From contig NC_015638.1 in NCBI RefSeq assembly GCF_000211855.2, positions 1,488,001-1,552,000 of the forward strand: 64,000 nt of DNA. Direction: 5' to 3'. The notes beneath the pieces are model-generated. The model had not been told where the DNA came from. It saw only the letters and a program-made list of their open reading frames with translations, and did no database searches. Origin of the DNA: Lacinutrix sp. 5H-3-7-4. GTDB lineage: Bacteria; Bacteroidota; Bacteroidia; Flavobacteriales; Flavobacteriaceae. The position numbers were made by a program, and so were the translations under genes. Below, one piece after another: positions 24,009 through 45,318 of the stretch. The first letter of the stretch is position 1, and each line of letters begins with the position of its first letter.

Positions 24009-24098
24009 CATTCGTCGACACTTAAACGTTATTCGTCATTGTTATAACAGGTATAAACGAAAACAAAATTTAATATCGCAGAATAATATTAATTTTGA
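24009..24098 (+). promoter_or_regulatory. LytTR-box promoter of the NO-signalling cluster
   Basis: Three direct repeats at 21-bp steps: CATTCGTC (24009-24016), TATTCGTC (24030-24037) and a weaker GTATAAACG (24051-24059). The -7 element TAATTTTG (24091-24098) is a perfect match and lies 61 bp after the start of the second box. No TTG is found at -33. The cluster it drives encodes the LytTR regulator, so autoregulation is implied. Confidence 0.65.
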
Positions 24099-24126
24099 AC
24101 AGAAATAATTTTTAAATACCCTCACA

Positions 24127-24540
24127 ATGTCCAAAAAACTTAAAATTCTTTTAATAGAAGACGATATCATTGAAAAAATGAAATTAAATCGTACGACTTC
24201 AGCTTTAAATTTAGAGCACGATATAATGGAGGCTAATAATGGTGAAGAAGCACTAGAGCTTTTAAAGAATAAAGATAATTTGCCAGACATAATATTATTA
24301 GATTTAAATATGCCAAAAATTAATGGTATAGAATTTTTAGGAATATTAAAAGCAGATCCAGTTTTAAAATATATTCCAACAATAATTTTAACGACATCAA
24401 ATAATCAAAAAGATTTATTAGAGTGTTATAGAATTGGTGTTGCAGGTTATGTTATAAAGCCTTTAAAATATGATGATTATGTTAGCAAAATAGAAAAATT
24501 ATTAGCATATTGGAGTGTTAATGAATTAATCGTAGTCTAA
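24127..24540 (+). CDS. single-domain response regulator (CheY/Rcp1-like receiver)
   Basis: A 137-residue stand-alone receiver. Acidic pocket E11-D12-D13 (LLIEDDIIEKMK), phosphoacceptor D59 in LLDLNMPKINGIEFL, conserved Thr in IILTTSNN, and Lys-Pro in VIKPLKYDDY. The N-terminal EDD and the LNMPxxxG pattern are of the Rcp1 type often found beside phytochrome or hybrid kinases. It has no output domain, so it would act by protein contact or as a phosphate sink. First gene of the cluster, 5 bp before the H-NOX gene. Confidence 0.93.
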   Translation: MSKKLKILLIEDDIIEKMKLNRTTSALNLEHDIMEANNGEEALELLKNKDNLPDIILLDLNMPKINGIEFLGILKADPVLKYIPTIILTTSNNQKDLLECYRIGVAGYVIKPLKYDDYVSKIEKLLAYWSVNELIVV

Positions 24541-24545
24541 ACGTA

Positions 24546-25085
24546 ATGAAAGGAATTGTTTTTACAGAATTTTTAGAACTAGTTGAAGATAAATTTGGTC
24601 TAGAAATGGTAGATAATATTATCTCCAGTTCTAACCTTGAGTCTGGAGGTGCATACACAGCAGTAGGCACTTATAGTTTTTCTGAAATGTTACAGCTTTT
24701 ACAACACCTAAGTAGTAATACCGGTATATCAATAGATAATTTGCTCCTTGTATATGCAGAGCATTTTTTTAGTGTAATAGAACACAGTTATCCAGGTTTA
24801 TTAGCAACGTATAACGATCCTATAGAATTAATTTCTTCTATAGAAAATCACATTCATGTTGAGGTTAGAAAAATCTATCCAGATGCAGAATTACCAACGT
24901 TTTTAATAGAAGAAAAATCAAGTGATTCTTTAAGAATAATTTATAAGTCTAGCAGAGCAATGCACCATTTTGGACTAGGCTTAATGAATAAAACTTTTGA
25001 GCATTTTAATACTACTGCCAAAATAGAATTACAAAAAATAAAAGAAGACGGAACTGAAGTTAGATTTATTATTAATAAAAACTAA
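24546..25085 (+). CDS. H-NOX (heme NO-binding, HNOB) sensor protein
   Basis: A 179-residue soluble heme sensor. It opens MKGIVFTEFLELVEDKFG, the signature start of H-NOX. The proximal heme ligand is predicted as H104 in NHIHVEVRKIYPDAELPTF, and the propionate-binding YxSxR motif is Y133-K-S135-S-R137. Bacterial stand-alone H-NOX proteins bind NO at picomolar-nanomolar levels and inhibit the adjacent histidine kinase. That kinase follows here with its ATG overlapping the H-NOX stop (TAATG), the standard arrangement. Confidence 0.95.
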   Translation: MKGIVFTEFLELVEDKFGLEMVDNIISSSNLESGGAYTAVGTYSFSEMLQLLQHLSSNTGISIDNLLLVYAEHFFSVIEHSYPGLLATYNDPIELISSIENHIHVEVRKIYPDAELPTFLIEEKSSDSLRIIYKSSRAMHHFGLGLMNKTFEHFNTTAKIELQKIKEDGTEVRFIINKN

Positions 25086-26677
25086 TGAGTCAAAATCAAG
25101 TCGAATTACTGCAACGCGCTTTGCAAAGAGAAAAAGCAGCTAGAAAAGCAGCCGAAAGTATACTTGAAGATAAATCAAGAGAACTTTACGAAGCAAACCA
25201 GAAACTAAAAGAAATAAATAGCGACCTAGAAACATCGCTAACTAAAGCAGACTCTCAATTACAAGGCGTTTTTGAGAACATAGTAGATGCTTATGTAATT
25301 ACAGATTTATGGGGGAATATTCTAAAAATGAATGATTCTGCTGTAAATCTTTTAGGTTTTAAAAATGCTAAAGAAGATTTCAATTTACTTGAAATGTTAG
25401 ATGTTAACGAAAAAGATAAAGTTCAATCTTGGTTTAAAAGCTTATTAAGAAGTGGCGCATCAACAGATTTTCATGTAAATATCACAACAAGAACAAATCA
25501 ACAAAAATTAGTACACATTAATTCTAGCTTAATATACGATAACGATGTAGCTGTAGCTGTACAAGGTATTGTTAGAGATGTAACTATACAAAATAAATAC
25601 AAAAAAAGTATAGAAGCCGAACGTTTAAAGTATAGTAATATTATTGCTAATATGAACTTAGGGCTAATAGAAATAAGTAAAGAAGGAGAAATTTTGATGA
25701 TGAATCAAAGTTTTTCAGATATTTCTGGATACAACGAAGCAGAACTTTTAGGAACCGTAGCAAAAGATATTTTTGCGGTAAATGATGCAGGAGCAGAGTT
25801 AATAGACAATGAAAAAAGAAAACGAGTAGAAGGAGAATCTAACTCCTACGAGCTCGAAGTAAAAACAAAAACAGGAGAACATAGGCACTGGCTAGTAAGT
25901 GGTGCTCCAAACTATAATTTAGAAGGAGAACAAGTTGGCTCAATAGCAGTAACTTTAGATATTACAGACTTAAAAAACCTCCAAAATCAAAAAGAAAAAC
26001 TCCTTAGTAAGTTAGAAAAAAGTAATGATGAATTACAAGAATATGCACACATTGTTTCTCACGATTTAAAATCACCATTACGAAGTATAAACGCCTTAGT
26101 AAGCTGGTTAAAAGAAGACAACCAAGGTAAGTTAGACGAAGTAAGCCTTCAAAATATCGCACATATTGAGACTACTCTAGAGAAAATGGAACAACTTATA
26201 ACAGATGTTTTAAATTACTCAAGTGTAGGAGCTCAAGTATCTGCATTGGCAGATGTAAACATACATAATTTAGTATCAGACTTATGTAAAATATTATATG
26301 TTCCAGAACATATAGAAATTAAAATTGTAAATCAATTACCAGTTATAAAAGGCGATAAAACTAAGTTACAACAACTGTTTCAAAACCTAATAAGTAATGC
26401 GGTAAAGTTTATTGATAAAGAAAAAGGCTTAATAGAAATTAAAGTTTTAGAATTATCAACACATTTTGAGTTTTCTGTAAAAGACAACGGAATGGGAATT
26501 GAAAAACAATTCCATGATAAGATTTTTAAAATATTTCATGCCTTAAATAAAAGTAAAGAATCTACAGGAATAGGTTTATCTATTGTTAAAAAAATAGTAG
26601 ACTTACATGAAGGAGAAGTATGGTTAGAAAGTGAGCCAAAAGTAGGAACAACCTTTTACTTTACACTAAAAAAGTAA
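25085..26677 (+). CDS. PAS-domain histidine kinase, probable H-NOX partner
   Basis: A 530-residue soluble hybrid-less kinase. It has an N-terminal coiled coil (about 1-58, ALQREKAARKAAESILEDKS), two PAS domains (about 60-180 and 185-300, the second with ISGYNEAELLG), and HisKA with H326 in YAHIVSHDLKSPLRSIN. The HATPase has LISNAVKF, DNGMGIE and STGIGLSIVKK. There is no membrane helix. Overlap with the H-NOX gene implies direct control by it. The kinase domain is closely similar to that of the kinase at 27814, pointing to duplication. Phosphate probably flows to the Hpt protein and LytTR regulator downstream. Confidence 0.93.
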   Translation: MSQNQVELLQRALQREKAARKAAESILEDKSRELYEANQKLKEINSDLETSLTKADSQLQGVFENIVDAYVITDLWGNILKMNDSAVNLLGFKNAKEDFNLLEMLDVNEKDKVQSWFKSLLRSGASTDFHVNITTRTNQQKLVHINSSLIYDNDVAVAVQGIVRDVTIQNKYKKSIEAERLKYSNIIANMNLGLIEISKEGEILMMNQSFSDISGYNEAELLGTVAKDIFAVNDAGAELIDNEKRKRVEGESNSYELEVKTKTGEHRHWLVSGAPNYNLEGEQVGSIAVTLDITDLKNLQNQKEKLLSKLEKSNDELQEYAHIVSHDLKSPLRSINALVSWLKEDNQGKLDEVSLQNIAHIETTLEKMEQLITDVLNYSSVGAQVSALADVNIHNLVSDLCKILYVPEHIEIKIVNQLPVIKGDKTKLQQLFQNLISNAVKFIDKEKGLIEIKVLELSTHFEFSVKDNGMGIEKQFHDKIFKIFHALNKSKESTGIGLSIVKKIVDLHEGEVWLESEPKVGTTFYFTLKK

Positions 26678-26680
26678 TCC

Positions 26681-27814
26681 ATGAAAACAGTACAATTAGT
26701 AAAGCACAAAAATAAAGACTGGCAATATGTAGTAGAGCATCAAGAACTAAAAGAGCCATTGGTATTAGTATTTGGTAATAGGTTTATGCTAGAAGACAAA
26801 AATATATACCAAGAAGTAAAAGATTTGTTTCCAGATGGACATATAATCTTTGCCTCATCATCTGCAGAGATTTCTTCAAATACAGTAAACCTTGATAGTA
26901 TTACAATTACTGCAATAGAGTTTGAAAAAAGTAGCTTTAAAATTAAAACAAGTAATGTTTTAAATACAGATTTAGATAGTTTTAAAACAGGAGGAGATTT
27001 AATAAATCAATTACCACAAGACGATTTAAAGTACGTTTTAGTAATATCTGAAGGTAGTTTTATAAACGGCAGTCAACTTACTAAAGGAATGAACAATGCA
27101 ACACAAAGCAACCTGTTAATTACAGGTGGATTATGTGGTGATGACGCTCGTTTTGAAAAAACATTGGCATCTTACAATGAAAACCCAAAAGAAGGAGAAC
27201 TTGTAGCTATTGGATTTTATGGAGATAGTTTAGAAATTTCATTTTCAATTCATGGTGGTTGGACTCCATTTGGTCCACAGCGTATAGTAACAAAATCTAA
27301 AGACAACATACTATACGAACTTGATGGTCAACCAGCTTTAGATTTATATAAAAAATATTTAGGAGAAAAAGCAAAAGATCTACCAGGAGCAGCTTTATTA
27401 TATCCATTAAATGTAACATCAGAAGAAGAAAACCAATCTATAGTTAGAACTATTTTAAATATAGACGAAGAAAATAATGCTGTAATTTTAGCAGGAGATA
27501 TAAAAGAAAACTCTAAAGTACAACTCATGATGACAAATGTAGATAACATTGCAAATGCATCAGAAAAAGCAGCAAGCCAAGCTTTAGAAATAAGAAAAAA
27601 TAAACCAGAATTAGCCTTGCTAGTAAGTTGTATAGGAAGAAAATTAGTATTAGACCAACGTGTAGAAGAAGAAATAGAAGAAGTTATTGAAGTTATAGGA
27701 GATGATGTTGTTATTAGTGGTTTCTATTCCTATGGAGAAATAGCACCTTTTCATGGAGAAGTGTCCTGCCAACTACACAATCAAACCATGACCATAACAC
27801 TAATAAGTGAATAA
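26681..27814 (+). CDS. FIST domain sensor protein, NosP-like
   Basis: A 377-residue soluble protein with FIST_N (about 25-210) and FIST_C (about 215-365) domains. Landmarks include LVFGNRFM, IIFASSSAEISSNTVN, GGLCGDDARFEKTLA, GWTPFGPQRIVTKSKDN, LYELDGQPALDLYKKYLG, and the end GFYSYGEIAPFHGEVSCQLHNQTMTI. Some FIST proteins (NosP) bind heme and NO and are encoded next to a histidine kinase (NahK). The next gene is such a kinase, whose ATG overlaps this stop. Heme binding is not provable from sequence; other FIST proteins bind different small ligands. Confidence 0.9.
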   Translation: MKTVQLVKHKNKDWQYVVEHQELKEPLVLVFGNRFMLEDKNIYQEVKDLFPDGHIIFASSSAEISSNTVNLDSITITAIEFEKSSFKIKTSNVLNTDLDSFKTGGDLINQLPQDDLKYVLVISEGSFINGSQLTKGMNNATQSNLLITGGLCGDDARFEKTLASYNENPKEGELVAIGFYGDSLEISFSIHGGWTPFGPQRIVTKSKDNILYELDGQPALDLYKKYLGEKAKDLPGAALLYPLNVTSEEENQSIVRTILNIDEENNAVILAGDIKENSKVQLMMTNVDNIANASEKAASQALEIRKNKPELALLVSCIGRKLVLDQRVEEEIEEVIEVIGDDVVISGFYSYGEIAPFHGEVSCQLHNQTMTITLISE

Positions 27815-28860
27815 TGAATTCACTATTAAAAAGACAAATACGTAAATATCTAAGTGAAGACCTAAAAAACAACGAGGGACTCACTCAGTTTTTTAATGCC
27901 ATAGATAGCTCTTATAATAATTTTGACGAACAATCAATAATGATTCAACGGGCAATGTCTATAAGCTCAGACGAGCTGTACGCTGCCAATCGTAAATTAC
28001 AAGACGAAGCAAAAGAGCAAAACGAAGTTATAGAAAAACTTAAAAGCGTAATTAATACACTTAAGTTTTACAATCTTAAAGCAGATGAAACCAAAGAAGA
28101 TGTTGAGTTAACAGGATCAAATTTGGTAGATTTTATAGATAACCAAACAAAAGAAATTGTAGAAATAAACAAACAAAAACAAGAACTTTTAAACGAGTTA
28201 TCTCACCAAAATCAGGAACTAAGTGACTATGCACATATGGTATCTCATGATTTAAAGTCACCATTAAGAAGTATAAATACATTAGTAACATGGTTAGCAG
28301 AAGATTATAAAGATGCTTTTGATGTTAATGGAAAAAATTCATTAAACCTCATTAAAAGTAATGTGGTTAAAATGGAAAACCTTATTAGTGGTATTTTAGA
28401 ATATTCTACTATAGGAAAAAATAAAATTGAGAATTACGATGTAAACCTAAATAAGTTGTTAGATAGTGTTTTAGAGATAATAGAAATTCCAGAACATATT
28501 AAAATAACCAGAACACATTTACCTGTAATTAAAGGAGATAAATACAGATTGCAGCAATTGTTTCAAAATTTAATAAGCAATGCCATAAAATATAACGATA
28601 AAGAAGAAGGTACTATTGATATAGGTTTTGAAGATAAAAACCAATATTGGCAATTTTATATAGAAGATAATGGAAAAGGTATAAAAGAAGCCTATTTCGA
28701 AAAAATCTTTAAAACCTTCGAGAAGCTTGACAATAATCCAGATTCATCAGGAATAGGGTTGTCAATTGTAAAAAAAATTATCGAGCTTTATGGAGGTAAA
28801 ATATGGTTAGAATCTAAATTAAATATTGGTACAACCTTTTATTTCACTATAAAAAAATAA
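27814..28860 (+). CDS. histidine kinase, probable FIST/NosP partner
   Basis: A 348-residue cytosolic kinase. The N-terminal about 130 residues are helical with a coiled coil (ISSDELYAANRKLQDEAKEQ); no PAS domain is evident. HisKA has H145 in YAHMVSHDLKSPLRSIN. The HATPase has LISNAIKY, EDNGKGI and SSGIGLSIVKK, ending GTTFYFTIKK. The catalytic half closely matches the kinase at 25085. It starts within the stop of the FIST gene and lies 4 bp before the Hpt gene. NahK-type kinases in other bacteria feed an Hpt protein, which agrees with this order. Confidence 0.92.
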   Translation: MNSLLKRQIRKYLSEDLKNNEGLTQFFNAIDSSYNNFDEQSIMIQRAMSISSDELYAANRKLQDEAKEQNEVIEKLKSVINTLKFYNLKADETKEDVELTGSNLVDFIDNQTKEIVEINKQKQELLNELSHQNQELSDYAHMVSHDLKSPLRSINTLVTWLAEDYKDAFDVNGKNSLNLIKSNVVKMENLISGILEYSTIGKNKIENYDVNLNKLLDSVLEIIEIPEHIKITRTHLPVIKGDKYRLQQLFQNLISNAIKYNDKEEGTIDIGFEDKNQYWQFYIEDNGKGIKEAYFEKIFKTFEKLDNNPDSSGIGLSIVKKIIELYGGKIWLESKLNIGTTFYFTIKK

Positions 28861-28864: not shown

Positions 28865-29182
28865 ATGGAACAGCCAAATCAATCCTATATAGATAGTTTA
28901 TCTGGAGGAGATCAAGCCTTTAAGCAGCAACTAATAGATGTTATAAAACTAGAATATCCACAAGAAAAACAAGAATATCTAGACAATATTAATTCTCAAC
29001 AATTAAAATTAGTAGCAGATAATGTACATAAACTTAAACATAAAATTAGTATTTTAGGGCTTGAAAAGAGTTATGATGTTGCTGTAGACTACGAAAACAA
29101 CTTACTTAAAGGTAATACAGACCAAAGAGAAGCATTTGAAGCTATATTAAACACCATAACAAAATACCTTAAGACGCTTTAA
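28865..29182 (+). CDS. Hpt (histidine phosphotransfer) domain protein
   Basis: A 105-residue, all-helical stand-alone Hpt protein. The phosphorylatable histidine is predicted as H55 in ADNVHKLKHKISILGL, which follows the usual H-x-L-K pattern with a conserved downstream LG. It is preceded by the typical FKQQLIDVIKLEYPQ helix. It would receive phosphate from the two kinases via a receiver (the stand-alone one at 24127 is a candidate) and pass it to the LytTR regulator 9 bp downstream. Confidence 0.88.
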   Translation: MEQPNQSYIDSLSGGDQAFKQQLIDVIKLEYPQEKQEYLDNINSQQLKLVADNVHKLKHKISILGLEKSYDVAVDYENNLLKGNTDQREAFEAILNTITKYLKTL

Positions 29183-29191: not shown

Positions 29192-29920
29192 ATGAAATGT
29201 ATTGTTATTGACGATGAGGCAACTGCCAGAATAATTATTGCTCAATTATGTTCAAATGTAGCAAGCCTTAATGTTTTAGAAGAGTTTCCTAATGCAATGC
29301 AAGCAATAAAATACTTAAATCAAAATCAAGTAGATTTAATATTTTTAGATATACATATGCCAGATTTTACAGGTTTCGACTTTATTGAAACCGTAAAAAA
29401 TCCTCCAAAAATTGTTTTAACAACTTCAGATCCTCAATTTGCAATTCAAGCTTTCGAATATGATTGTATTGTAGATTATTTAGTAAAACCAATAACTCAA
29501 GAGCGTTTTAATAAAGCGATAGAAAAAGCTAAAGCAAAGCAAACAACCATCCCTATAGAGCAGTCCGTTTCAACTAGAAAAAACACAGAAAAAGTAGAAA
29601 CATCTTCAGGTAACGATTTATATGTGAATATAGATAGGCGCTTAATCAAAATAGATATTCCAAGTATTTATTTAGTAGAAGCAAAAGGCGATTATATACA
29701 AGTTAAAACCGAAGATAAAAACTATACAGTACATTCTACATTAAAAAAAATTGAAGAAAAATTACCAGACAGTTTATTCTTAAAAGTACATCGTTCTTAT
29801 ATAATTAATATAAAAAAAATTATAGATATAGAAGATAATAGTGTGCTAATTAAAAAAGATGTAATTCCTGTAAGCCGTTCTAACAGGCCAGAGTTAATGA
29901 AGCGTTTAAACCTATTGTAA
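29192..29920 (+). CDS. LytTR-family response regulator
   Basis: A 242-residue receiver plus LytTR DNA-binding domain. Receiver: D7-D8-E (VIDDEAT), phosphoacceptor D53 in LIFLDIHMPDFTG, Thr in IVLTTSD, Lys in VKPITQ. A linker at about 122-142 precedes LytTR (about 145-242), with NIDRRLIKIDIPSIYLVEAKGDYIQVKT, LFLKVHRSYIIN and VIPVSRSNRPELMKRL. LytTR proteins bind paired direct repeats about two helix turns apart; such repeats (CATTCGTC type) precede this operon and five other promoters in the window. I infer it is the regulator of all of them. Confidence 0.95.
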   Translation: MKCIVIDDEATARIIIAQLCSNVASLNVLEEFPNAMQAIKYLNQNQVDLIFLDIHMPDFTGFDFIETVKNPPKIVLTTSDPQFAIQAFEYDCIVDYLVKPITQERFNKAIEKAKAKQTTIPIEQSVSTRKNTEKVETSSGNDLYVNIDRRLIKIDIPSIYLVEAKGDYIQVKTEDKNYTVHSTLKKIEEKLPDSLFLKVHRSYIINIKKIIDIEDNSVLIKKDVIPVSRSNRPELMKRLNLL

Positions 29921-30019: not shown

Positions 30020-30088
30020 CATTCAACTACACTTAAAAATGTGCTAATCGAAAATCTATAGTTTCGACATATATTAATTTTAGTTTTA
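30020..30088 (+). promoter_or_regulatory. LytTR-box promoter of the CAP-domain gene
   Basis: CATTCAAC (30020-30027, then TACAC) and GCTAATCG (ending at 30050) form repeats 22 bp apart. TAGTTTTA (30081-30088, 7 of 8 to TAnnTTTG) starts 61 bp after the first box. Confidence 0.55.
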
Positions 30089-30112: not shown

Positions 30113-30601
30113 ATGAAAAAATTATTATTAATCCCATTAGTACTTTGTGCTTTTCTAATGTCTTGTTCCTCACAAGACGAGTTTGAAACCGAAGACTCTC
30201 ACGACAAAAATTTGAATGTAACCTACAACTCAATAGATTATGAAGTTGTAGAATTAATTAATGCACATAGAATTTCATTAGGTTTAAATACCTTAAATAT
30301 TTTAGATGATGTTTCTGCAGCTGCAATATCACATACTCAATATATGGTTGGTCAAGGTAAAGCCAGTCATGATAACTTTTATTCTAGATCTCAACACTTG
30401 AAAGCTAAAATAAATGCAAAAATAGTATCAGAAAACGTAGCATATGGTTTTACTAATGCAGAAGCATTGGTAAATGCATGGCTAAATAGTGATGATCATA
30501 GAGAAAATATTGAAAATGCCGAATTAACAGAATTAGGTGTAGCCTGTAAGAAAAACAATTCTGGCAAATATTTTTTTACTAATATTTTTGTAAAAATATA
30601 G
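30113..30601 (+). CDS. CAP/SCP domain lipoprotein
   Basis: A 162-residue predicted lipoprotein (MKKLLLIPLVLCAFLMSC, lipobox Cys at 18, then SSQDEFETED). The CAP fold is about 45-160: VELINAHRISLGLNTLNI, AAAISHTQYMVGQGKASHDNF, SENVAYG and AWLNSDDHRENIEN. The paired histidines (SH...H and DDHRENI) match the CAP cavity residues. Bacterial CAP proteins are secreted, of mostly unknown biochemical activity, and often linked to envelope or matrix. Single gene with its own LytTR-box promoter directly after the regulator gene. Confidence 0.9.
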   Translation: MKKLLLIPLVLCAFLMSCSSQDEFETEDSHDKNLNVTYNSIDYEVVELINAHRISLGLNTLNILDDVSAAAISHTQYMVGQGKASHDNFYSRSQHLKAKINAKIVSENVAYGFTNAEALVNAWLNSDDHRENIENAELTELGVACKKNNSGKYFFTNIFVKI

Positions 30602-30722: not shown

Positions 30723-33323
30723 ATGACAAGAACTTTACCTACTTTTAAACAAAAAATAATAGCATTAGCTATATTGCTTTTAAGTTATTCTGTTTTTGCT
30801 CAAAACATTCCGTTTAACTGTGATTACAGTGCTTACTTATTTCAGTATAACGATGTTTATGCAATTGATTTAGCTTCAGGAAATTCATTTTTAGCAGCTA
30901 CAGATGTTACACCAGGTAATATAAATGCCGCAGCTTATAATCCTGCAGATGGTTTTATTTGGGGTTACTTAAGTTCGCCATCAAAAACAATTGTTAGAAT
31001 AGGTAAAGATTTTCAAACAACATCGTTTACTATTCCAGAATTAACAACAGGAAATAAATACGTTGGAGACATTAGTCCAAATGGCGTTTATTATTTTAAA
31101 GCTGGAGGCGCAACATATTATAAAGTAGATTTAAACCCAAACTCTCCTACTTATACTCAGTACCTATCTACAGAAAATTTATCTCAAAGTTTAAATATTC
31201 ATGATTGGGCATTTAATGCAGTAGATGGTAAATTATATGCAGTAGAAAAGACTACAAATATTTTATATAGAATTGATCCTGAAACAAACGTTGTTCAAAA
31301 TTTAGGTATTGTACCAATATTATCAGGTTTAAATTACACTTATGGCGCAGTTTATTTTGATGCAGATGGACGTTTTTATGTGTCAGCAAATCAAACAGGA
31401 ACCATATACGTAATACAAAGCGTTCAAGATTTAGACGGTATAAACGTTATAAATTCTAACTTATTTGCTTTTGGGCCTTCAAGTGCAAGTAATGATGGTG
31501 CACGTTGTCCAACAGCTCCAGTAGTGCAAGAGATTTGTGATAATGGAATTGATGATGATGGTGATGGACTAAAAGATTGTGATGATCCTTCTTGCTCTGG
31601 ATTTGGAAACTGTGAAGTAATTACGCCGCCAACTTCTGCTAATAATGGAGGTTTAGAAAGTAATGGAAGATTATCTGAAGTTATTAATAAACGTAACTTT
31701 AACCGTGCAAGAAACAGTTATAAATTTGACCAAAGTACAGCGCCGCGAGTAACAGCTAGTAGTATTGCAGCACAAAGAAGCTCTTTTACAGGATTTCAAT
31801 TACAAGATTTCGTACCATTAACAACAATTAATGAAGACTATGCAGTAGACTCAACACCTCAAGATTTATTAAATATTACAAATGCAACAGAAGTATACTC
31901 AGTAGATTATATCCAAAACAATGCATCAATAGCATCAATTTTAGCTTTAAAAACAGAAAATGGTGTATACGAGCACACAAAATATATATGTGATAGATTA
32001 TTAGGAGCAGAGTTAATATCTGTATCAACTATAGATATAAACGGAGAATCATTTATAAAATCTATTATAAAAAATGCTGATGGGAGCTTTGAATATGTAT
32101 TAAGTTTATCTGCAAAAGTAGTAAATAATGATGCTAATTTTAAAGTAGAAAGTCACTGGAATTTAGATTTATATGAAGAAAATGTAACATTTTATAATTT
32201 CCAAATTTGGTCAGACTCAATTGATGATTTATACCTTCTGTCAGAAGAAGTATTAAACTTATTAAATACCGAAAAACCAATTTCTGGATACCAATTATCT
32301 ACACCACCAACAGTATTTGTTAGAAAAGGAAAATATATAAATGGAAATTTAGACCTTGAAATTATAAATACTAACGGAACAGGAAACGTTGGGTTCGATT
32401 CGGGATTTAGAACAACAGAAACTAGTGAATTTAGTTACTCAACAACGTCAATAGATTTAAACCAGAATTATATTACAGAAATAGCAGTACCTACAGGAAA
32501 CCTATTCGATATAGGGTTTAGAATTGGAGACGGCATTAACACACCAGACGATCTATTTATGTCTGATGGTCCTTGGGGAGTTGATGACTCTCAAGCAACA
32601 ACAACGGTGAATAATTACCAAGTAACTCAAAATAATAATACAGTTGAAGAAAATGAGTTTCCTATTGAAAGAAATATACTTTTAAATGCAACTACAAGTA
32701 CATATTTTGCAGCTTATAGAGCATTAACGCCAAGATTTCAAGCGGTAGACTTAACAGATTATAGCTCTTTAGAATTTGACGCTAAAGGCACAGGTAATGT
32801 AGAAGTAACTTTAGTAAAAGGCAGTGTTTCAAATTGGAATGAGCAATACAAAACAACAATAGCATTGACAGATAGTACTCAAAGTTTTGTAATTCCATTC
32901 ACACAATTCTCTTCTACTTTAAATACAAGTTTTGAAGCTAACGATATTGTAACTATAGTTTTTACAATGGTGAGTGAAGATGGTTCTTTGCAAACAAAAG
33001 AAATGAAAATAGAAGATGTGTTATTCTCTAGAGTATCACTATTATCTGTAGACGAATTTGAAGCAGAAGATAACACTATGGTAGCTTATCCAAATCCTAT
33101 GCATGAAACTTCTAGTATTTTATTTAAAGCGAAACATAATGAAACAATGCAGTTAGTAGTTTATAACCAATTAGGAAAAGTTGTTTATAATACAGCAATA
33201 AACGCACAAGTTGGGAAAAATGAAATAACGATTAATAAGCAAAATTTAAGTTCAGGATTATACATCTGTAAATTATCTGGACAACAAACTCATTATAATC
33301 CCTTAAAGTTATTAGTAAAGTAA
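30723..33323 (+). CDS. large secreted protein with T9SS type A C-terminal sorting domain
   Basis: An 866-residue surface or secreted protein. Signal peptide at about 1-26 (LAILLLSYSVFAQ). Residues 28-260 form a beta-propeller-like DUF6923-type domain (DVYAIDLASGN, NPADGFIWGYLSSPS, DGKLYAVEKTTNILYRIDPET). A calcium-binding-like DxDxDG block follows at about 275-295 (NGIDDDGDGLKDCDDPSC). A long beta-rich middle leads to the type IX sorting domain (about 785-866: VAYPNPMHETSSILF..., LGKVVYNT, LSSGLYICKL, LKLLVK). It is exported by the type IX system and possibly attached to lipopolysaccharide. Target of the LytTR-box promoter upstream; no enzymatic motif seen. Confidence 0.85.
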   Translation: MTRTLPTFKQKIIALAILLLSYSVFAQNIPFNCDYSAYLFQYNDVYAIDLASGNSFLAATDVTPGNINAAAYNPADGFIWGYLSSPSKTIVRIGKDFQTTSFTIPELTTGNKYVGDISPNGVYYFKAGGATYYKVDLNPNSPTYTQYLSTENLSQSLNIHDWAFNAVDGKLYAVEKTTNILYRIDPETNVVQNLGIVPILSGLNYTYGAVYFDADGRFYVSANQTGTIYVIQSVQDLDGINVINSNLFAFGPSSASNDGARCPTAPVVQEICDNGIDDDGDGLKDCDDPSCSGFGNCEVITPPTSANNGGLESNGRLSEVINKRNFNRARNSYKFDQSTAPRVTASSIAAQRSSFTGFQLQDFVPLTTINEDYAVDSTPQDLLNITNATEVYSVDYIQNNASIASILALKTENGVYEHTKYICDRLLGAELISVSTIDINGESFIKSIIKNADGSFEYVLSLSAKVVNNDANFKVESHWNLDLYEENVTFYNFQIWSDSIDDLYLLSEEVLNLLNTEKPISGYQLSTPPTVFVRKGKYINGNLDLEIINTNGTGNVGFDSGFRTTETSEFSYSTTSIDLNQNYITEIAVPTGNLFDIGFRIGDGINTPDDLFMSDGPWGVDDSQATTTVNNYQVTQNNNTVEENEFPIERNILLNATTSTYFAAYRALTPRFQAVDLTDYSSLEFDAKGTGNVEVTLVKGSVSNWNEQYKTTIALTDSTQSFVIPFTQFSSTLNTSFEANDIVTIVFTMVSEDGSLQTKEMKIEDVLFSRVSLLSVDEFEAEDNTMVAYPNPMHETSSILFKAKHNETMQLVVYNQLGKVVYNTAINAQVGKNEITINKQNLSSGLYICKLSGQQTHYNPLKLLVK

Positions 33324-35892: not shown

Positions 35893-35961
35893 CATTCATC
35901 TACAGCAATTGTCTACTCGTCGAAATTCAACTGAATTTGAGATGATTACAATGCATCTTTG
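35893..35961 (+). promoter_or_regulatory. LytTR-box promoter of the STAS/flippase operon
   Basis: CATTCATC (35893-35900, followed by TACAG) and TACTCGTCGA (about 35914-35923) are repeats 21 bp apart. CATCTTTG (35954-35961; 7 of 8 to TAnnTTTG) starts 61 bp after the first box. The site lies between this operon and the divergent exporter gene and might affect both. Confidence 0.55.
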
Positions 35962-36266: not shown

Positions 36267-36290
36267 ACAATAACTATTAAAATATATATT

Positions 36291-36569: not shown

Positions 36570-36596
36570 TCTATAACGCATAACTCTATAATTAAA

Positions 36597-37835
36597 ATGC
36601 AAGCTTTAACCTTAACACGAAAAATATCTCCAGAACAACTATTTATGCTAAGTGTATTAGCTGTAAATGGAGGCAACTATTTGTACAACCTTATTTTAGG
36701 TCGTGTATTAGGGCCAGCGCAATTTGCAGATGCAGCAGTTTTAATAACGTTTTTGTTAGTGCTATCTTTTGTAGCTATGACATTCCAGTTAGTTACTGCA
36801 AAGTTTTCGGTAATTTTTGAAAATGAAACTTTTGCCAATTTTGTGGCAAAAATATATAAACATGCCACAATTGTAGGACTTGGTTTTGGAGCTTTAATAA
36901 TAGTATTTGCAAAACAATTACAAATAGTTTTTAACACCTCTTCTTCAAGTATGTTTACCATATTTGGAATAGGCGTGCCTCTTTATTTTCTAATGAGTGT
37001 TAATAGAGGTGTATTTCAAGGTAAAAAAGAATTTAAGTTTTTATCAATCACTTATCAAGCAGAAATGCTAAGCAGGTTGGTAATTACCTTAGGTTTAATT
37101 TTTTTATTTAACATACAATCATCTGTAGTAATTGCTATAGGTATTTTAATATCATTTGGTTTTGGGTTAATTCCTTTTAAATTTAAAAATATAAAGTTTA
37201 AAAATATATTGGCAATTGATGCAGCTGAATCTAAACAAGTTCGTAGCTTTTTTATAATCACTGCATTTTATGAACTAACACAAATAATAATTAACAATAG
37301 TGATATTCTTTTAGTTAAACATTACTTTGACTCTTATGATGCAGGATTATACGCGTCATTAGCCTTAATTGGTCGTATTGTTTACTTTATAGCCTGGATG
37401 TTTGTTATGTTATTATTACCAACAGTTGTGCAGTTAAAAAAAGAAGGTAAAGCAACAGCACCAATATTGTTTAAGTACGTTGGTTATATAGCAGGAATTG
37501 CAACAGCAATTATTATTGGTTGTGCATTATTTCCAAAAACAGCAATTACCATTTTATTTGGAGACAGTTATTTGGCAATGGCGCCATTGTTATGGAAGTA
37601 CGCCTTGGCAACCGGCTTGTTTGCTATATCAAACATATTTGCATACTACTATTTATCCTTAGACAGGTACATACCTGTTGTAATATCTGGAGTATTTGGA
37701 ATGCTTCAAATGGGTTTAGTAATATTTTTTCATGACAGTTTAGAGCAAGTAGTACACATGCAAATTATAGCCATGTCGTTATTACTTGTAATACAAATTA
37801 GTTTTTTTGCTTTCGACTCAAAGTTGAAACAATAA
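36597..37835 (+). CDS. MOP-superfamily polysaccharide flippase
   Basis: A 412-residue polytopic membrane protein with about 12 helices. The start is typical of Wzx/PelG-like transporters: LSVLAVNGGNYLYNLILGRVLGPAQFADAAVLI, with the conserved Asn/Gly/Arg residues of helix 1 and the LGP turn. It continues with RGVFQGKKEF near 140 and NNSDILLVKHYFDSYDAGLYASLALIGR near 235-262. It should move lipid-linked glycan units, or work with a synthase, in the inner membrane. The operon is STAS-STAS-flippase, ending in a strong terminator (37869-37899). Confidence 0.88.
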   Translation: MQALTLTRKISPEQLFMLSVLAVNGGNYLYNLILGRVLGPAQFADAAVLITFLLVLSFVAMTFQLVTAKFSVIFENETFANFVAKIYKHATIVGLGFGALIIVFAKQLQIVFNTSSSSMFTIFGIGVPLYFLMSVNRGVFQGKKEFKFLSITYQAEMLSRLVITLGLIFLFNIQSSVVIAIGILISFGFGLIPFKFKNIKFKNILAIDAAESKQVRSFFIITAFYELTQIIINNSDILLVKHYFDSYDAGLYASLALIGRIVYFIAWMFVMLLLPTVVQLKKEGKATAPILFKYVGYIAGIATAIIIGCALFPKTAITILFGDSYLAMAPLLWKYALATGLFAISNIFAYYYLSLDRYIPVVISGVFGMLQMGLVIFFHDSLEQVVHMQIIAMSLLLVIQISFFAFDSKLKQ

Positions 37836-37948: not shown

Positions 37949-38017
37949 CATTCGTCTATACGAAAATGCATTCCGTCTAAGGCTAATAGAATAACCCTTT
38001 TTTAATGCGCAAATTTG
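37949..38017 (+). promoter_or_regulatory. LytTR-box promoter of the GT4 gene
   Basis: CATTCGTC (37949-37956, then TATAC) and ATTCCGTCTA (about 37970-37979) are repeats 21 bp apart. CAAATTTG (38010-38017; 7 of 8) starts 61 bp after the first box. Confidence 0.6.
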
Positions 38018-38066: not shown

Positions 38067-39305
38067 ATGAAACTAGCAATTGTAACAGCATATCCACCAA
38101 GTAAAGTCACACTAAACGAGTATGCTTACCATTTGGTAAAGCATTTTAGACAAAAAGAAAATGTAACCGAAATAGTGTTACTTACAGATAAAACTGAAGG
38201 AGAAAAAGATATCGCGTTTACTGAAGCTGGATGTGAAATTACAGTAAAAGAATGTTGGGCGTTTAATAGTTATACTAACATAGTCAACGTTACCAAAGCT
38301 ATTAATGCAACCAAACCAGATGCTGTATTATTTAATTTGCAGTTCATGAAATTTGGTGATAAAAAAATAGCTGCAGCATTAGGTTTAATGTTGCCATTAG
38401 TTTGTAAGTTAAAAAACATACCAAACATAGTTTTATTACATAATATCCTTGAAGAAGTAGATTTAGGATCTGCAGGATTTACAAGTAACAAATTAATGCA
38501 AAAAGTATATGGTTTTATAGGTACTAGCTTAACTAAATTAATTTTACAAGCAGATACAGTTGCAGTAACCATGCAAAAATATGTTGACATTTTAGAGAAA
38601 AAATATAAAGTAAACAATGTAAATTTAATTCCGCATGGAACTTTTGAAGTTACAGAAGTACAACCTGATTATAAATTACCAAAAGGACCTTTACAAGTGA
38701 TGACTTTTGGGAAATTTGGTACTTACAAAAAAGTAGAAGGTATGATTGAAGCTGTAGAAAAAGTGAGAGCATCTACAGGATTAGATTTAGAAGTTGTAAT
38801 AGCAGGAACAGACAACCCAAATGTACCAGGTTATTTAGCAAAAGTACAAGAAGATTATAAACATGTGCCTCAATTACGCTTTACAGGTTATGTAGAAGAA
38901 GTAGAAGTACCAGTATTATTTAATGAAAGTGCAGTGGTAGTATTTCCATACACATCAACTACAGGAAGCTCAGGAGTTTTACACCAAGCAGGTAGCTATG
39001 GTAAAGCAGTAGTAATGCCAGATTTAGGAGATCTTGCTTTGTTGGTTAAAGATGAAGGTTATCAAGGTGAGTTTTTTGAGCCAACATCTATTGATAGTTT
39101 AGCTAAAGCAATTGAAGCTATTGTAACTAATGATGATTATAGAATTGAATTAGGGAAAACAAATTATAAAGCTGCAACTGCTTATCCAATGGAAAAAATT
39201 GCAAGTATGTATTTAAATAGTTTTGATAAAATAATTGAAAATAAAAAACCAGCTAAATCTAGAAAAAATCAAGCAATAGATATACAACCTACAACTATTG
39301 ATTAA
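38067..39305 (+). CDS. family 4 glycosyltransferase
   Basis: A 412-residue GT-B enzyme. The N-terminal acceptor domain opens KLAIVTAYPPSKVTLNEYAYHLV. The C-terminal donor domain has LQVMTFGKFGTYKKVEGMIEAVEKV, RFTGYVEEVEVPVLFNESAVVVFPYTST and the nucleotide-binding GSSGVLHQAGSYGKAVVMPDLGDL. The typical GT4 EX7E pair is modified: the E-rich end is replaced by SSGVLHQA, so the catalytic pattern is not standard. It is transcribed alone from a LytTR-box promoter, between the flippase operon and the convergent hydrolase operon. Confidence 0.9.
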   Translation: MKLAIVTAYPPSKVTLNEYAYHLVKHFRQKENVTEIVLLTDKTEGEKDIAFTEAGCEITVKECWAFNSYTNIVNVTKAINATKPDAVLFNLQFMKFGDKKIAAALGLMLPLVCKLKNIPNIVLLHNILEEVDLGSAGFTSNKLMQKVYGFIGTSLTKLILQADTVAVTMQKYVDILEKKYKVNNVNLIPHGTFEVTEVQPDYKLPKGPLQVMTFGKFGTYKKVEGMIEAVEKVRASTGLDLEVVIAGTDNPNVPGYLAKVQEDYKHVPQLRFTGYVEEVEVPVLFNESAVVVFPYTSTTGSSGVLHQAGSYGKAVVMPDLGDLALLVKDEGYQGEFFEPTSIDSLAKAIEAIVTNDDYRIELGKTNYKAATAYPMEKIASMYLNSFDKIIENKKPAKSRKNQAIDIQPTTID

Positions 39306-42058: not shown

Positions 42059-45000
42059 TAATTTGGACTACCTATATACGTGTTAATTTCTATTTTAATA
42101 TAACTAAAATCTTTATGGTTAATTGGTTGTAATTCGCCATTGGTATGATTTAGAATTCGGTTTGGTACTATTTTATCAGAAATGGCCTCGTTTGGTAAGC
42201 CATTTACAAAAATGTTTTTCATACTATCATTAATAATTTCTACATAACCATCTTGTAAAATAGGATACTCAAAATGTTGCTTACGTTGTTGTCTAACTCC
42301 TGCTTTAACAAATAAATGATCTACCCAAACCATGTTTTTGTTAGCATCATAATAGGAAATTAAAAGTTGCGGTATGGTAATTTCTTGAATACCACTATTA
42401 AAAAGGTTTCCGTTTAGTATACTATCTTTAATTTGTACTTCACTTAAAACTACATTTTTATATAAGTCAGATCCTGATACATTTCCAGCAATTTGTAAGT
42501 TGAATTTTGTGGGTTGTTCTTCAAACTCAACAGGTGTAAATTCGTCTGGATTAAACGTGTCAGGAATAGAATCTTGTGTTTTTGACCAGGCAATACCTTC
42601 AAAATTAATTCTAAAACTACTAGATTCTTTAGGCATTAATTTATGCTTGACATGGTATTTAGCGTTGTAGGTTGCCAGTTGTTTGTTATCATCATTATAT
42701 AATGTTCCTTTTAAAATAACATCTGCAGGAACATTATCTATGTTTTGCACTTCTCCAATAATAGCATAGCTACAATCATAATGCACAAGTTTGGCAGAAA
42801 CAACTTCTAAAACGGGTTGTTTTAAAATATCTTCATGATGCGTTGCTTCTGTAGTAATGCGTCGTCTTCCTTGGTTAAAATACTTCGTAACATTGTCTGA
42901 GTATAATTGATCAGGAGGTAAGTCGTTATTTAAATCATCTGGTTGTAAAAACCATTTTCCTTTAATTTTAGATAGTGATTTATAATCTACTTTTTCAATT
43001 TTTTCTAAAGGTGTAATCCATTGGCTAGTTACTTTTGCAGAAACCGTACTATCATTTAGTGCTGTAATTTCGGTTTCAATAGCATCCATTTTTGCATAAC
43101 TGCTTAATAGCCCATCCGTAACTGAAATCTCTAACATATATTGTGCAATTGGAATGTTGCTATTAGGATCAATTAAACTATGTGCTTTTTCAAATTCTTT
43201 AAAATCTAAAGCATCGTAATAGGCGATAATGGCGTTTTCTGGACTAAGTTGCGATTCGTTTTTTAAGTAGAAGAGATAAACTCCATAAGACACAACACCT
43301 GCTAAAACTAGAGACCAAAGGTGTGTGATGCGTAATACATTTCTATTAAATTTATTATAAGCAGTTGGGAACTTTAAAAAATCAGGAAGTGGTTTTTCTT
43401 TGGTTTTTAAAGCAATAACAAATAGCATTTGTATGTTTAAAACAAACGCAATTAAAACGGTTAAAAAAGGCATGATTCCCCAATGAATCTTCAGCCATTT
43501 AGCAACATCTTCTTTAGGTAAAATAGCAGAAACTGGCGGAATGTTTAAGCGTTCCCAAACCATAATACCATTTTCTAATTGCCGTAAACGTTGCCAACCA
43601 CAGAAATAGAGAATTGGGTCGTAAAACTTATCGTTAGAAAAAATATACTTTAGGTTATACTTTTCTGGAGTAGTTAAAAATTGTTGTAAAGAGCCAATAC
43701 CAGCAACACCTTTAAATTTAGAGTTTTCTAAGCGCTCAATAGGTCTTGTGGTTAATTCTGGTAATCTTCTAGCAGAATGGTAATTTCCATCAACAGTCAT
43801 GGCATTCGTTTGTGCACTCAACCAAGCCATTTGGTCTCCAAAACCAAGCGTTAAAAATCGCCATTTATCATGATCATCTTGATTTAAGAAATTCACAATC
43901 GGTAGCATTTTAATTTTTTGTGGTTGTGATGGTCTAAAGTAATTTAAACTCATAGTAAATACTACCATAAAGACAAATAAACCCGCTAAGATTCCACCAA
44001 TAATGCGATGGTAAACAGCGCCAAATTTAGATTGAATTAATGCTTTTAAATCGCCTTGAACAAAGCGATAGGCAAATTCACCCATTAAAGGAATGGATAA
44101 AATAGAAGCCCAAAGTGTAAAACGATCTAAGGTTAAAATATTAAAAGCAGTTTCTCCTAACATTTTTAGTGGTACAGGAGTTGTTCCTCCAGTTCCTAAG
44201 ATGGTACAAATGGTAACCGATAATCCAAAAAACAAGTAACGTTTGCTATAGTATCTATAAAAAATATACGGTAATAATACGAGTAGAATTCCCCAAGGAA
44301 TTAAAAAGAAAACCAATCCTGAAGACGTAATTTCTAAAAAATTATCTCGAGAACCATGTGGAATTGGCACTTGCGTAATTGGGTTGGCTTTTGAGTTTAG
44401 CCAATACGGAAAAATACAACCTACAATTAACACTAAAGACAGCATGCCAAAGCTTACAATACGTTTAAAAAGCTTAAAAAAGCTATTCAAAAATATTTTG
44501 AAAGTAACTTCTTTCATGCTATTTACTTGCTCTCTAGAAACATCCATTAAAACCATACCTATTAAAGGAAAAATAAAGAATACCATTCCAAAAATAGGTG
44601 TTACATGATGTGAGGTAACAGTAACTGCTATAAGCGATAAGCTAGTGGCTAAGTACCATTTCCTACCTGTTTTTAACCATAAATAAATTTCAGGTAAAGC
44701 ATGCATTAAAACCGAAACACCAACAATACTAGGCAATTGTCCAAAAATATGAAGCGTTTCTACAAACGAAGATGAGAAAACCGCCAAAACACAAGCATAA
44801 CCAGCTACGGTTTTATTGGAAGTCATTAACAGTGAAAAACGATACGTACCAGTAACAAATAGCACAATAGCAATAAGTGCAACGCTAAACATACCAAATT
44901 TTAAGCCACCAACTAAAGATAATAATCCAATAGATTGGTGTACTAAAGGTGGATAACTTTGTACTGTAAAACCAGTGTACCACTCGTAGTTCCATGGTTC

Positions 45001-45147
45001 AAACCAACTATTAGCATAGTGATCTGCAAAAAATAAATGGATTAATGCATCATAAGTAGTTTCCAAAGTAAAAAATATGGAACTACCATGAAAAGACAAT
45101 CCTAAAAGGAGCGCAGCAATTAAAAATTTATTTGAGGTTTCTTTCAA
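42058..45147 (-). CDS. large polytopic membrane protein (6-pyruvoyl-tetrahydropterin synthase-related membrane domain, GT-C-like)
   Basis: A 1029-residue protein. The N-terminal about 560 residues hold about 12 helices with the pattern of the membrane family annotated as PTPS-related: LETTYDALIHLFFADHYANSW, WYTGFTVQSYPPLVHQ. It resembles GT-C oligosaccharyl transferases, with an Asp/His-rich first periplasmic loop. A helix pair at about 555-640 is followed by a soluble NTF2-like and beta-sandwich region at about 660-1029. I take it as a candidate polymerase or transferase of the polysaccharide locus; the assignment of activity is inference. First gene of the leftward three-gene operon. Confidence 0.75.
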   Translation of the reverse strand: MKETSNKFLIAALLLGLSFHGSSIFFTLETTYDALIHLFFADHYANSWFEPWNYEWYTGFTVQSYPPLVHQSIGLLSLVGGLKFGMFSVALIAIVLFVTGTYRFSLLMTSNKTVAGYACVLAVFSSSFVETLHIFGQLPSIVGVSVLMHALPEIYLWLKTGRKWYLATSLSLIAVTVTSHHVTPIFGMVFFIFPLIGMVLMDVSREQVNSMKEVTFKIFLNSFFKLFKRIVSFGMLSLVLIVGCIFPYWLNSKANPITQVPIPHGSRDNFLEITSSGLVFFLIPWGILLVLLPYIFYRYYSKRYLFFGLSVTICTILGTGGTTPVPLKMLGETAFNILTLDRFTLWASILSIPLMGEFAYRFVQGDLKALIQSKFGAVYHRIIGGILAGLFVFMVVFTMSLNYFRPSQPQKIKMLPIVNFLNQDDHDKWRFLTLGFGDQMAWLSAQTNAMTVDGNYHSARRLPELTTRPIERLENSKFKGVAGIGSLQQFLTTPEKYNLKYIFSNDKFYDPILYFCGWQRLRQLENGIMVWERLNIPPVSAILPKEDVAKWLKIHWGIMPFLTVLIAFVLNIQMLFVIALKTKEKPLPDFLKFPTAYNKFNRNVLRITHLWSLVLAGVVSYGVYLFYLKNESQLSPENAIIAYYDALDFKEFEKAHSLIDPNSNIPIAQYMLEISVTDGLLSSYAKMDAIETEITALNDSTVSAKVTSQWITPLEKIEKVDYKSLSKIKGKWFLQPDDLNNDLPPDQLYSDNVTKYFNQGRRRITTEATHHEDILKQPVLEVVSAKLVHYDCSYAIIGEVQNIDNVPADVILKGTLYNDDNKQLATYNAKYHVKHKLMPKESSSFRINFEGIAWSKTQDSIPDTFNPDEFTPVEFEEQPTKFNLQIAGNVSGSDLYKNVVLSEVQIKDSILNGNLFNSGIQEITIPQLLISYYDANKNMVWVDHLFVKAGVRQQRKQHFEYPILQDGYVEIINDSMKNIFVNGLPNEAISDKIVPNRILNHTNGELQPINHKDFSYIKIEINTYIGSPN

Positions 45148-45249
45148 TTATTAGGCTTCGTTATTTTTTATTAAATAAAGTTATAACATAATGGTAAAGA
45201 TAAATAAATAAAATACGGCTTCCATTTTTAATTATCTATAGTAATCTAC

Positions 45250-45318
45250 CATTCGTCGACACATAGTTATTGATTAATCTAAATTAGAAATGTAATTGTC
45301 TATTCTACAGTACTTTTG
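45250..45318 (+). promoter_or_regulatory. LytTR-box promoter of the receiver-GT2 / manA operon
   Basis: CATTCGTC (45250-45257, followed by GACAC) and GATTAATC (45272-45279) are repeats 22 bp apart. TACTTTTG (45311-45318) is a perfect -7 element 61 bp after the first box. The site is also 103 bp upstream of the divergent membrane-protein gene and could act on both. Confidence 0.65.

What the first reader, a model, noticed from the sequence alone, without database searches (positions are those of the whole stretch)
24009..45318. Shared LytTR-box promoter architecture marks a regulon in the window
Six promoters (24009, 30020, 30632, 35893, 37949, 45250) carry CATTCGTC-type boxes as direct repeats 21-22 bp apart. 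The start of the proximal pair lies 60-61 bp before a TAnnTTTG-like -7 element in all six, with no -33 TTG. CATTCGTC resembles the AlgR box CCGTTCGTC, and LytTR proteins bind such paired repeats. The genes are the NO cluster itself, CAP lipoprotein, T9SS protein, STAS/flippase operon, GT4 and receiver-GT2/manA. Fixed spacing is strong evidence of one activator. The regulator is likely the LytTR protein at 29192.
Basis: partly seen in the sequence, partly recalled or inferred. Interest (0 to 1): 0.85.

Follow-up and report, generated by a model that had tools for sequence, protein, structure and literature searches.

The report
Local gas-sensor regulon with shared promoters
A marine bacterium carries six look-alike promoters, all within one 22-kb stretch, that appear to let a single switch protein beside a nitric-oxide sensor turn on genes for a surface polysaccharide, and the same arrangement recurs in dozens of related species.

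Summary
The bare octamer is not enriched, but the longer box ACCATTCGTC[GT]ACAC is: the genome's four matches with at most one mismatch all lie in this window. A matrix of 84 sites from relatives ranks the six sites first (17.5-28.4; next 10.6). Boxes repeat at 21/22 bp; a -7 element can be placed 60/61 bp from the proximal pair in all six. In 80 named Flavobacteriaceae loci, 265 intergenic hits lie on the LytTR strand, 2 on the other. The motif follows the LytTR orthologue: 32 genomes with it hold 88 hits (control 13), 87 without hold 23 (control 32). Best reading: an autoregulated LytTR response regulator, fed by an H-NOX phosphorelay, activates an adjacent exopolysaccharide locus with a BcsC/PgaA/PelB-like porin, in genomes without GGDEF proteins over cut-off (0 of 32). 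Corrections: the second box is degenerate, the autoregulatory promoter has three boxes, the regulon is local. DNA binding, NO input and its sign are untested.

The parts
24009..24021 (+). distal (third) box of the autoregulatory promoter, CATTCGTCGACAC
   Evidence: 0 mismatches to the 15-mer; PWM 27.6
24030..24063 (+). proximal box pair (TATTCGTCATTGT at 24030; GTATAAACGAAAA at 24051, spacing 21)
   Evidence: read; a -7 at 81/82 bp from the first box is common at this promoter in relatives
24090..24097 (+). -7 element TAATTTTG, 60 bp after 24030 (81 after 24009)
24127..24540 (+). stand-alone receiver, first gene of the sensor operon
   Evidence: PF00072 1.4e-20
24546..25085 (+). H-NOX (HNOB); H102 and Y133-x-S135-x-R137 near-invariant in 27 homologues
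   Evidence: PF07700 4.8e-39
25085..26677 (+). PAS-PAS histidine kinase
26681..27814 (+). FIST protein, NosP-like (NCBIfam NosP 56.5 bits, below its cut-off of 450)
27814..28860 (+). second histidine kinase
28865..29182 (+). histidine phosphotransfer protein (sub-threshold Hpt match; conserved HKxKH)
29192..29920 (+). REC-LytTR response regulator, proposed box-binding activator
   Evidence: PF04397 1e-21, PF00072 6.2e-18; orthologues (>=59% identity) in 32 of 119 genomes, own included
30020..30088 (+). box pair (22 bp) and -7 TAGTTTTA at 30081; weakest site
   Evidence: PWM 17.5
30113..30601 (+). CAP-domain protein
   Evidence: PF00188
30632..30699 (+). box pair (21 bp) and -7 TAAATTTG at 30692
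   Evidence: 0 mismatches, PWM 27.8
30723..33323 (+). DUF6923 protein with T9SS sorting tail
33788..35854 (-). TPR superhelix + 16 C-terminal strands, predicted export porin; no box of its own found
   Evidence: model pLDDT 90.3; BcsC, 4y25 secretin and PelBC among the first 27 PDB matches
35893..35961 (+). box pair (21 bp) and -7 CATCTTTG at 35954
   Evidence: PWM 18.4
35988..37835 (+). two STAS-like proteins and a polysaccharide flippase
   Evidence: STAS matches below the curated cut-off
37949..38017 (+). box pair (21 bp) and -7 CAAATTTG at 38010
   Evidence: 1 mismatch, PWM 23.3
38067..39305 (+). GT4-type glycosyltransferase
   Evidence: PF00534
39330..45147 (-). GH5-like, Ig-like and large membrane protein genes, recurrent in the locus, no box of their own found in the window
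45250..45318 (+). box pair (22 bp) and -7 TACTTTTG at 45311
   Evidence: 0 mismatches, PWM 28.4
45350..48051 (+). receiver-GT2 fusion, GT2, mannose-6-phosphate isomerase

Best explanation
The six promoters are the local regulon of the REC-LytTR protein at 29192. Phosphorylated LytTR, probably as a dimer, binds a strong upstream box (ACCATTCGTC[GT]ACAC) and a weaker box 21-22 bp downstream on the same face of the helix. The pair is centred near -56 relative to the predicted start, and it recruits RNA polymerase to promoters that have a -7 element but no -33 TTG. It autoactivates its own sensor operon through a three-box promoter and activates a CAP protein, a T9SS-secreted protein, and STAS/flippase, GT4 and receiver-GT2/manA genes of an exopolysaccharide locus. 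The input is most likely NO (H-NOX, and here also the NosP-like FIST protein) controlling the two kinases, with the Hpt protein passing phosphate to LytTR. By analogy with known H-NOX kinases, NO should lower LytTR phosphorylation and so lower exopolysaccharide expression. Shown by computation: motif, spacing, conservation, co-inheritance with LytTR, locality. Inferred: binding, activation, phosphorelay wiring, NO as signal and its sign, polysaccharide as product.
For: A matrix of 84 sites from relatives, own genome excluded, ranks exactly the six sites first in 64 kb. 32 genomes with the orthologue: 88 hits at <=1 mismatch against 13 control; 87 without: 23 against 32; 67 of the 88 lie within 35 kb of the LytTR gene, in 27 of 32 genomes, and all 67 are on its strand. 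80 named loci: 265 + intergenic, 3 + in-gene, 2 - hits, one mononucleotide shuffle 4; 77 of 80 loci have a hit. -7: 79 of 83 exact matches at 60/61/81/82 among 231 sites; <=1 mismatch at these positions in 170 of 231, with TTG in 0-3.5% at each of 14 offsets where a -33 would lie. Box + -7 pattern in the 32 whole genomes: 78 against 8 control. The 36 genomes with only LytTR paralogues: 13 against 18 control. In G023 the H-NOX/EPS cluster sits on another contig without sites, while two sites sit beside LytTR. H-NOX can be missing (G017, G059) while LytTR and sites stay. Of 20 proteins scanned between 24127 and 48051, Pfam gives a DNA-binding domain to 29192 alone.
Against: No binding or expression data. 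The matrix was seeded by a pattern taken from this window, so the held-out test is not blind, and orthologous promoters are not independent. Five of 32 orthologue genomes have no near site at <=1 mismatch, two (G021, G069) none at <=2. 61 of 231 sites have no -7 at the rule positions. Of 64 sites with the -7 at 81/82, the middle box resembles the first (score >=5) in 27 only. G008 and G061 keep sites without LytTR, although both are internal deletions across the locus. The divergent export-porin and membrane-protein genes have no clear box of their own in the window. Three of 32 LytTR genomes lack any H-NOX (G060 is 82% complete), and a FIST gene is seen in 14 of 32 neighbourhoods only, so NO need not be the ancestral or only signal. 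In G014 the separated EPS locus has no site scoring 9 or more, so the EPS target is not obligatory.
Confidence: 0.82

Rival explanations
1. Another regulator (not the LytTR protein) binds the boxes and is merely co-inherited with the locus.
For: Co-inheritance alone cannot tell neighbours apart; REC, kinase and Hpt genes travel with LytTR in most of the 32 neighbourhoods. One protein of the block (the 1028-aa membrane protein) has no Pfam family at all.
Against: Pfam finds no other DNA-binding domain in the 20 proteins scanned. Sites stay with LytTR when H-NOX is missing (G017, G059) or when the H-NOX/EPS cluster lies elsewhere (G023). The box is 8 of 9 identical to the AlgR box CCGTTCGTC and has the LytTR direct-repeat period.
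Confidence: 0.1
2. LytTR binds the boxes but the signal is not NO (for example redox, O2, or PAS-sensed signals), and H-NOX/FIST are modulators or redox sensors.
For: Three of 32 LytTR genomes lack any H-NOX and FIST is seen in 14 of 32 neighbourhoods; the PAS kinase is a possible independent sensor; the own genome has no NirK over the cut-off. Oxidation of H-NOX is reported to inhibit its kinase (passage of PMC8738867).
Against: H-NOX lies in this locus in 28 of the 30 H-NOX-bearing genomes among 72 family genomes and has the conserved heme-binding residues.
Confidence: 0.3
3. The protein acts as a repressor on these promoters, as CoxC does.
For: Some LytTR proteins repress (CoxC, PMC11347149 passages).
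Against: CoxC repeats overlap the -35 box, while most LytTR proteins bind upstream of it and activate (same passages). Here the boxes would end about 40 bp upstream of the predicted start and the promoters lack a -33 TTG; AgrA repeats are centred near -60.
Confidence: 0.1
4. Chance: short AT-rich boxes picked by eye.
For: The octamer alone is not enriched.
Confidence: 0.01

Closest known systems
H-NOX / histidine kinase / phosphotransfer circuits of Vibrio and Shewanella (HahK-SypF-syp of V. fischeri; the hno regulon with HnoC of S. oneidensis)
   Same: H-NOX beside a kinase, an Hpt step, exopolysaccharide or biofilm output; HnoC gives a transcriptional feedback loop (PMC8738867, passages).
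   Different: Output here is a LytTR regulator with its own boxes; no GGDEF protein over cut-off in any of 32 genomes, so no c-di-GMP branch is in sight; in the window H-NOX and a FIST protein share one gene row with two kinases and one Hpt protein.
AgrA-type LytTR activators
   Same: Two direct repeats, proximal pair centred near -60, suboptimal promoter (PMC4227749, passages); positive autoregulation (PMC6769237, passages).
   Different: Different box sequence and Bacteroidota -7 promoter; gas-sensor input instead of a peptide.
AlgR of Pseudomonas aeruginosa
   Same: Half-site CCGTTCGTC against CCATTCGTC here, 8 of 9 bases (PMC4064291, passages); AlgR also acts on exopolysaccharide genes (algD).
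   [quoted passage not shown] different signal; orthology not tested.
RcoM1 and CoxC (LytTR one-component regulators of CO oxidation genes)
   Same: Gas-related sensing coupled to LytTR and triplets of direct repeats (PMC11347149, passages; CO sensing by RcoM1 itself is recalled).
   Different: There the sensor is fused to LytTR; here sensing would run through a multi-protein phosphorelay.
BcsC / PgaA / PelB exopolysaccharide export porins
   Same: Periplasmic TPR superhelix plus C-terminal barrel in the gene at 33788.
   Different: Low sequence identity (9-13%), query TM-scores of 0.35-0.36, many plain TPR proteins rank as high, and no family cut-off reached.

Membership tests
LytTR response regulator | LytTR DNA-binding domain and receiver domain | tested here: met
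   PF04397 77.4 bits (cut-off 22.6), PF00072 65.4 bits (cut-off 30.2)
LytTR response regulator | binding to ~9-bp direct repeats 10-13 bp apart | tested here: inconclusive
   Repeats with 21/22-bp period are present and conserved; binding itself not testable here. The rule is from PMC11347149.
AlgR regulon | box CCGTTCGTC | tested here: inconclusive
   8 of 9 bases match; AlgR orthology not examined.
H-NOX NO sensor | HNOB domain with proximal His and YxSxR | tested here: met
   PF07700 134.3 bits (cut-off 25.5); H102, Y133, S135, R137 present in at least 93% of 27 homologues. YxSxR as a heme motif and which His is proximal are recalled; that a proximal His binds heme is in PMC8738867.
NosP | NCBIfam equivalog NosP over cut-off | tested here: not met
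   56.5 bits against 450; FIST N and C domains are over their cut-offs, so FIST family and NosP-like only.
H-NOX to c-di-GMP pathway | GGDEF output enzymes in the genome | tested here: not met
   0 of 32 genomes over the cut-off, one sub-threshold match in G063; 8 of 14 control genomes ring. EAL domains not searched.
exopolysaccharide export porin (BcsC/PgaA/PelB-like) | TPR superhelix followed by an outer-membrane beta-barrel | tested here: met
   Model with pLDDT 90.3, helical repeats then 16 strands; matches 9b8a BcsC 3.5e-12, 4y25 polysaccharide outer membrane secretin 1.5e-8 (PgaA; name recalled), 9h80 PelBC 2.3e-8. Fold only; secretion not tested.

The most novel reading that the evidence does not exclude
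In Flavobacteriaceae the H-NOX NO sensor is hard-wired to a transcriptional, c-di-GMP-free output. One dedicated LytTR activator, with a two- or three-box promoter code phased 60/61 bp from a -7-only promoter, controls its own sensor operon and the adjacent exopolysaccharide locus. This would be a complete NO-to-matrix circuit in genomes that have no detectable c-di-GMP synthases.
Probability: 0.55. Interest if true: 0.82.

Novelty: new variant of a known kind. Interest (0 to 1): 0.74.

Why it matters
It gives a sequence-level promoter code for a response regulator in Flavobacteriaceae, names its likely target genes, and ties 28 of the 30 H-NOX genes found in 72 sampled family genomes to one locus. 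It suggests how bacteria without GGDEF proteins could turn an NO signal into matrix production, and makes that directly testable with one deletion, one gel shift and one NO donor. In the listings of my ten paper searches and the passages read from six papers I saw no description of this circuit. The library holds open-licence papers only, and the octamer search returned 667 papers of which 20 were listed, so absence from print is not established.

Tried and rejected
Rejected: the octamer CATTCGTC alone as evidence (24 against 20.35 expected). Rejected: a genome-wide regulon; at <=2 mismatches the genome shows 7 hits against 10 in control, and the relaxed box + -7 pattern finds 8, five of them in this window, against 7 in control. 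The 32 orthologue genomes hold 21 matches away from the locus, to be set against 13 control hits anywhere in them. I fetched stretches round eleven far places: four sites lie inside genes, two places show no site of score 15, and two sit 67 and 107 bp before a gene (G020, G026) and may be real extra targets; the other three are not convincing. Rejected: reading the sites in G035, G047, G015, G001, G092, G025 and G095 as regulatory; all seven lie inside reading frames. Led nowhere: the structure of the 1028-aa membrane protein (pLDDT 51.0) was not interpreted; a PDB search by sequence with the LytTR protein gave receiver-domain matches in the 60 of 108 rows shown. H-NOX + LytTR paper search: two papers; in the one opened the LytTR passage concerns S-nitrosylation of AgrA, the other I saw only in the listing. 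Papers: passages only of PMC4227749, PMC11347149, PMC8738867, PMC9723704, PMC4064291 and PMC6769237; none read whole; all others seen in listings only.
Full report
WHAT WAS CHECKED. The window is G000:C1:1488001-1552000 of a 3,296,168-bp single-contig genome.

THE SITES. The six sites and their downstream genes are present as stated. The octamer on its own is not enriched (24 hits, 20.35 expected). Read as a longer box, WCCATTCGTCKACAC, it is: 10 hits in the window at <=3 mismatches against 1.74 expected, and at <=1 mismatch 4 hits in the whole genome, all four in this window, with 0 for the reversed pattern. At <=2 mismatches the genome is at control level (7 against 10). The pattern box + 50/51 bp + NANNTTTR finds 8 places genome-wide, five of them the sites at 30020, 30632, 35893, 37949 and 45250, with 7 in control; the sixth (24009) is missed because its -7 is placed from the second box.

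ANATOMY. Reading the letters: first box to second box is 21 bp (24009, 30632, 35893, 37949) or 22 bp (30020, 45250); a -7-like octamer begins 60 or 61 bp after the first box of the proximal pair in all six, exact in three and with one mismatch in three. At 24009 there are three boxes (24009, 24030, 24051) and the -7 is 60 bp after the middle one. In the named loci, 64 of the 170 sites with a -7 at a rule position have it at 81/82 instead of 60/61 bp, 37 of them before the receiver gene and 23 before the T9SS gene; in 27 of the 64 the middle box scores 5 or more against the first-box matrix, against 11 of 106 at the 60/61 sites. The second box is degenerate and ends in CGAAA. In Flavobacterium psychrophilum TAnnTTTG lies at -12 to -5 (PMC9723704, passages); if so here, the box pair spans about -73 to -40 and is centred near -56, close to the value near -60 given for AgrA (PMC4227749, passages). 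A -33 TTG is missing: TTG in 0-3.5% of 170 promoters at each of 14 offsets.

CONSERVATION. I searched 119 genomes including the own one for the box and for the LytTR protein. Taking an orthologue as >=59% identity, 32 genomes have one. They hold 88 hits at <=1 mismatch (13 control hits); the 87 others hold 23 (32 control). Of the 88, 67 lie within 35 kb of the LytTR gene, in 27 of 32 genomes, all 67 on its strand; the five without are G021, G023, G030, G063 and G069. At <=2 mismatches the fetched neighbourhoods (9 to 64 kb) hold 106 hits, 99 on the LytTR strand in 30 of 32 genomes and 7 on the other; G021 and G069 have none. The 36 genomes with only LytTR paralogues (E <= 1e-40) have 13 hits against 18 control. 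A matrix of 84 sites from relatives, own genome left out, puts exactly the six reported sites at the top of the 64-kb window, 17.5-28.4, the next being 10.6. The matrix was seeded by a pattern from this window and related promoters are not independent, so this is strong but not a blind test. Of the exceptions, two Kordia loci have a shifted variant scoring 13.5 at the same place, L216 has its sensor operon start off the contig (it has two strong sites after LytTR), and L213 has only a weak site, 6.5. Among 231 sites with at least 100 bp of sequence, 79 of 83 exact TANNTTTG lie at 60, 61, 81 or 82 bp; at <=1 mismatch, neighbouring-offset pairs count 107 (60/61) and 64 (81/82) against a mean of 3.6 and a maximum of 24 elsewhere, and 61 of 231 sites have none at a rule position. 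In the 32 whole genomes the box + -7 rule gives 78 hits against 8 control, in 27 of 32 genomes.

WHICH PROTEIN. Of 20 proteins scanned between 24127 and 48051, Pfam gives a DNA-binding domain to 29192 alone; one, the 1028-aa membrane protein, matches no family. Natural experiments agree. G017 and G059 have no H-NOX gene but keep LytTR and sites, three in G017 and one in G059 on the LytTR strand. In G023 the H-NOX operon and the polysaccharide genes lie on another contig, more than 100 kb from its ends, and have no site of score 9 or more at their promoters, while two sites lie beside the LytTR gene; that this 61% copy is the displaced orthologue and not a second paralogue is an assumption. In G014 the polysaccharide genes lie on another contig without a site of score 9 or more (a degenerate pair scores 2.6), while LytTR keeps its sites. 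Two genomes seem to contradict: G008 and G061 have sites but no LytTR orthologue. Both are internal deletions: in G008 the receiver gene runs into a remnant of the large membrane-protein gene, in G061 the FIST gene is cut and fused to an unrelated gene and H-NOX has an in-frame stop; a real deletion and an assembly fault cannot be told apart here.

WHAT IT CONTROLS. The recurrent block is receiver, H-NOX, PAS kinase, (FIST, second kinase), Hpt, LytTR, (CAP), T9SS protein, TPR protein, STAS-like, flippase, GT4, GH5-like, Ig-like, large membrane protein, receiver-GT2, GT2, manA; not all genomes have all parts, and FIST is seen in 14 of 32 neighbourhoods. The TPR protein is predicted with high confidence (pLDDT 90.3) as helical repeats plus 16 strands. 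Among the first 27 PDB matches are BcsC (ranks 1-2), 4y25, a polysaccharide outer membrane secretin (rank 23, target TM 0.79), and PelBC (rank 27); the others of the 50 rows shown are mostly plain TPR or helical-repeat proteins. The membrane-protein gene occurs in 27 of 72 family genomes, 26 of them with the LytTR orthologue and the last being G008. No GGDEF domain reaches the cut-off in any of 32 genomes, while 8 of 14 control genomes ring. NirK reaches its cut-off in 9 of 32 genomes and not in the own one, so NO would come mainly from outside or from other enzymes; this is inference.

MECHANISM. Shown by sequence: a conserved two- or three-box code with fixed phase to a -7-only promoter, local to and co-inherited with one LytTR gene. 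Inferred: activation; autoactivation through the receiver promoter; phosphate flow kinase to Hpt to LytTR; NO as input. In Vibrio fischeri, HahK promotes syp exopolysaccharide, likely through the Hpt domain of SypF, and H-NOX inhibits this in an NO-dependent manner (PMC8738867, passages). By analogy NO should lower expression here.

VERDICT. LytTR regulons and H-NOX circuits are known kinds; their union in one locally acting, promoter-phased circuit in genomes without detectable GGDEF proteins is a new variant.

Noticed in passing
45350-46534: A receiver domain fused to a GT2 glycosyltransferase, beside a stand-alone receiver at 24127: the phosphorelay might also control polysaccharide synthesis directly. 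In G071 the corresponding protein starts at the GT2 part without the receiver.
   Followed up: partly
L092 (G008) and L093 (G061): Internal deletions through the locus that removed LytTR; the box sites remain. G061 H-NOX has an in-frame TAG.
   Followed up: partly
35988-36569: Two tandem STAS-like 92-aa proteins head the flippase operon; function unclear.
   Followed up: no
G017 and G031 loci (L096+L120, L075+L116), upstream of the large membrane-protein gene: A second, oppositely oriented box lies 33 bp from the receiver-GT2 site, pointing at the divergent membrane-protein gene; not seen in the window.
   Followed up: no
L228 (G026) 7897; L232 (G020) 7316: Possible distant regulon members: a 763-aa protein (site 107 bp before it) and a 356-aa protein (67 bp before it).
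   Followed up: partly
42058-45147: 1028-aa protein without a Pfam family, strongly conserved within the locus; structure prediction failed (pLDDT 51.0).
   Followed up: partly
L203, L211 (Kordia): Box variant GCATTTCGTCTACAC at the same promoter positions, one base longer in the left arm.
   Followed up: partly
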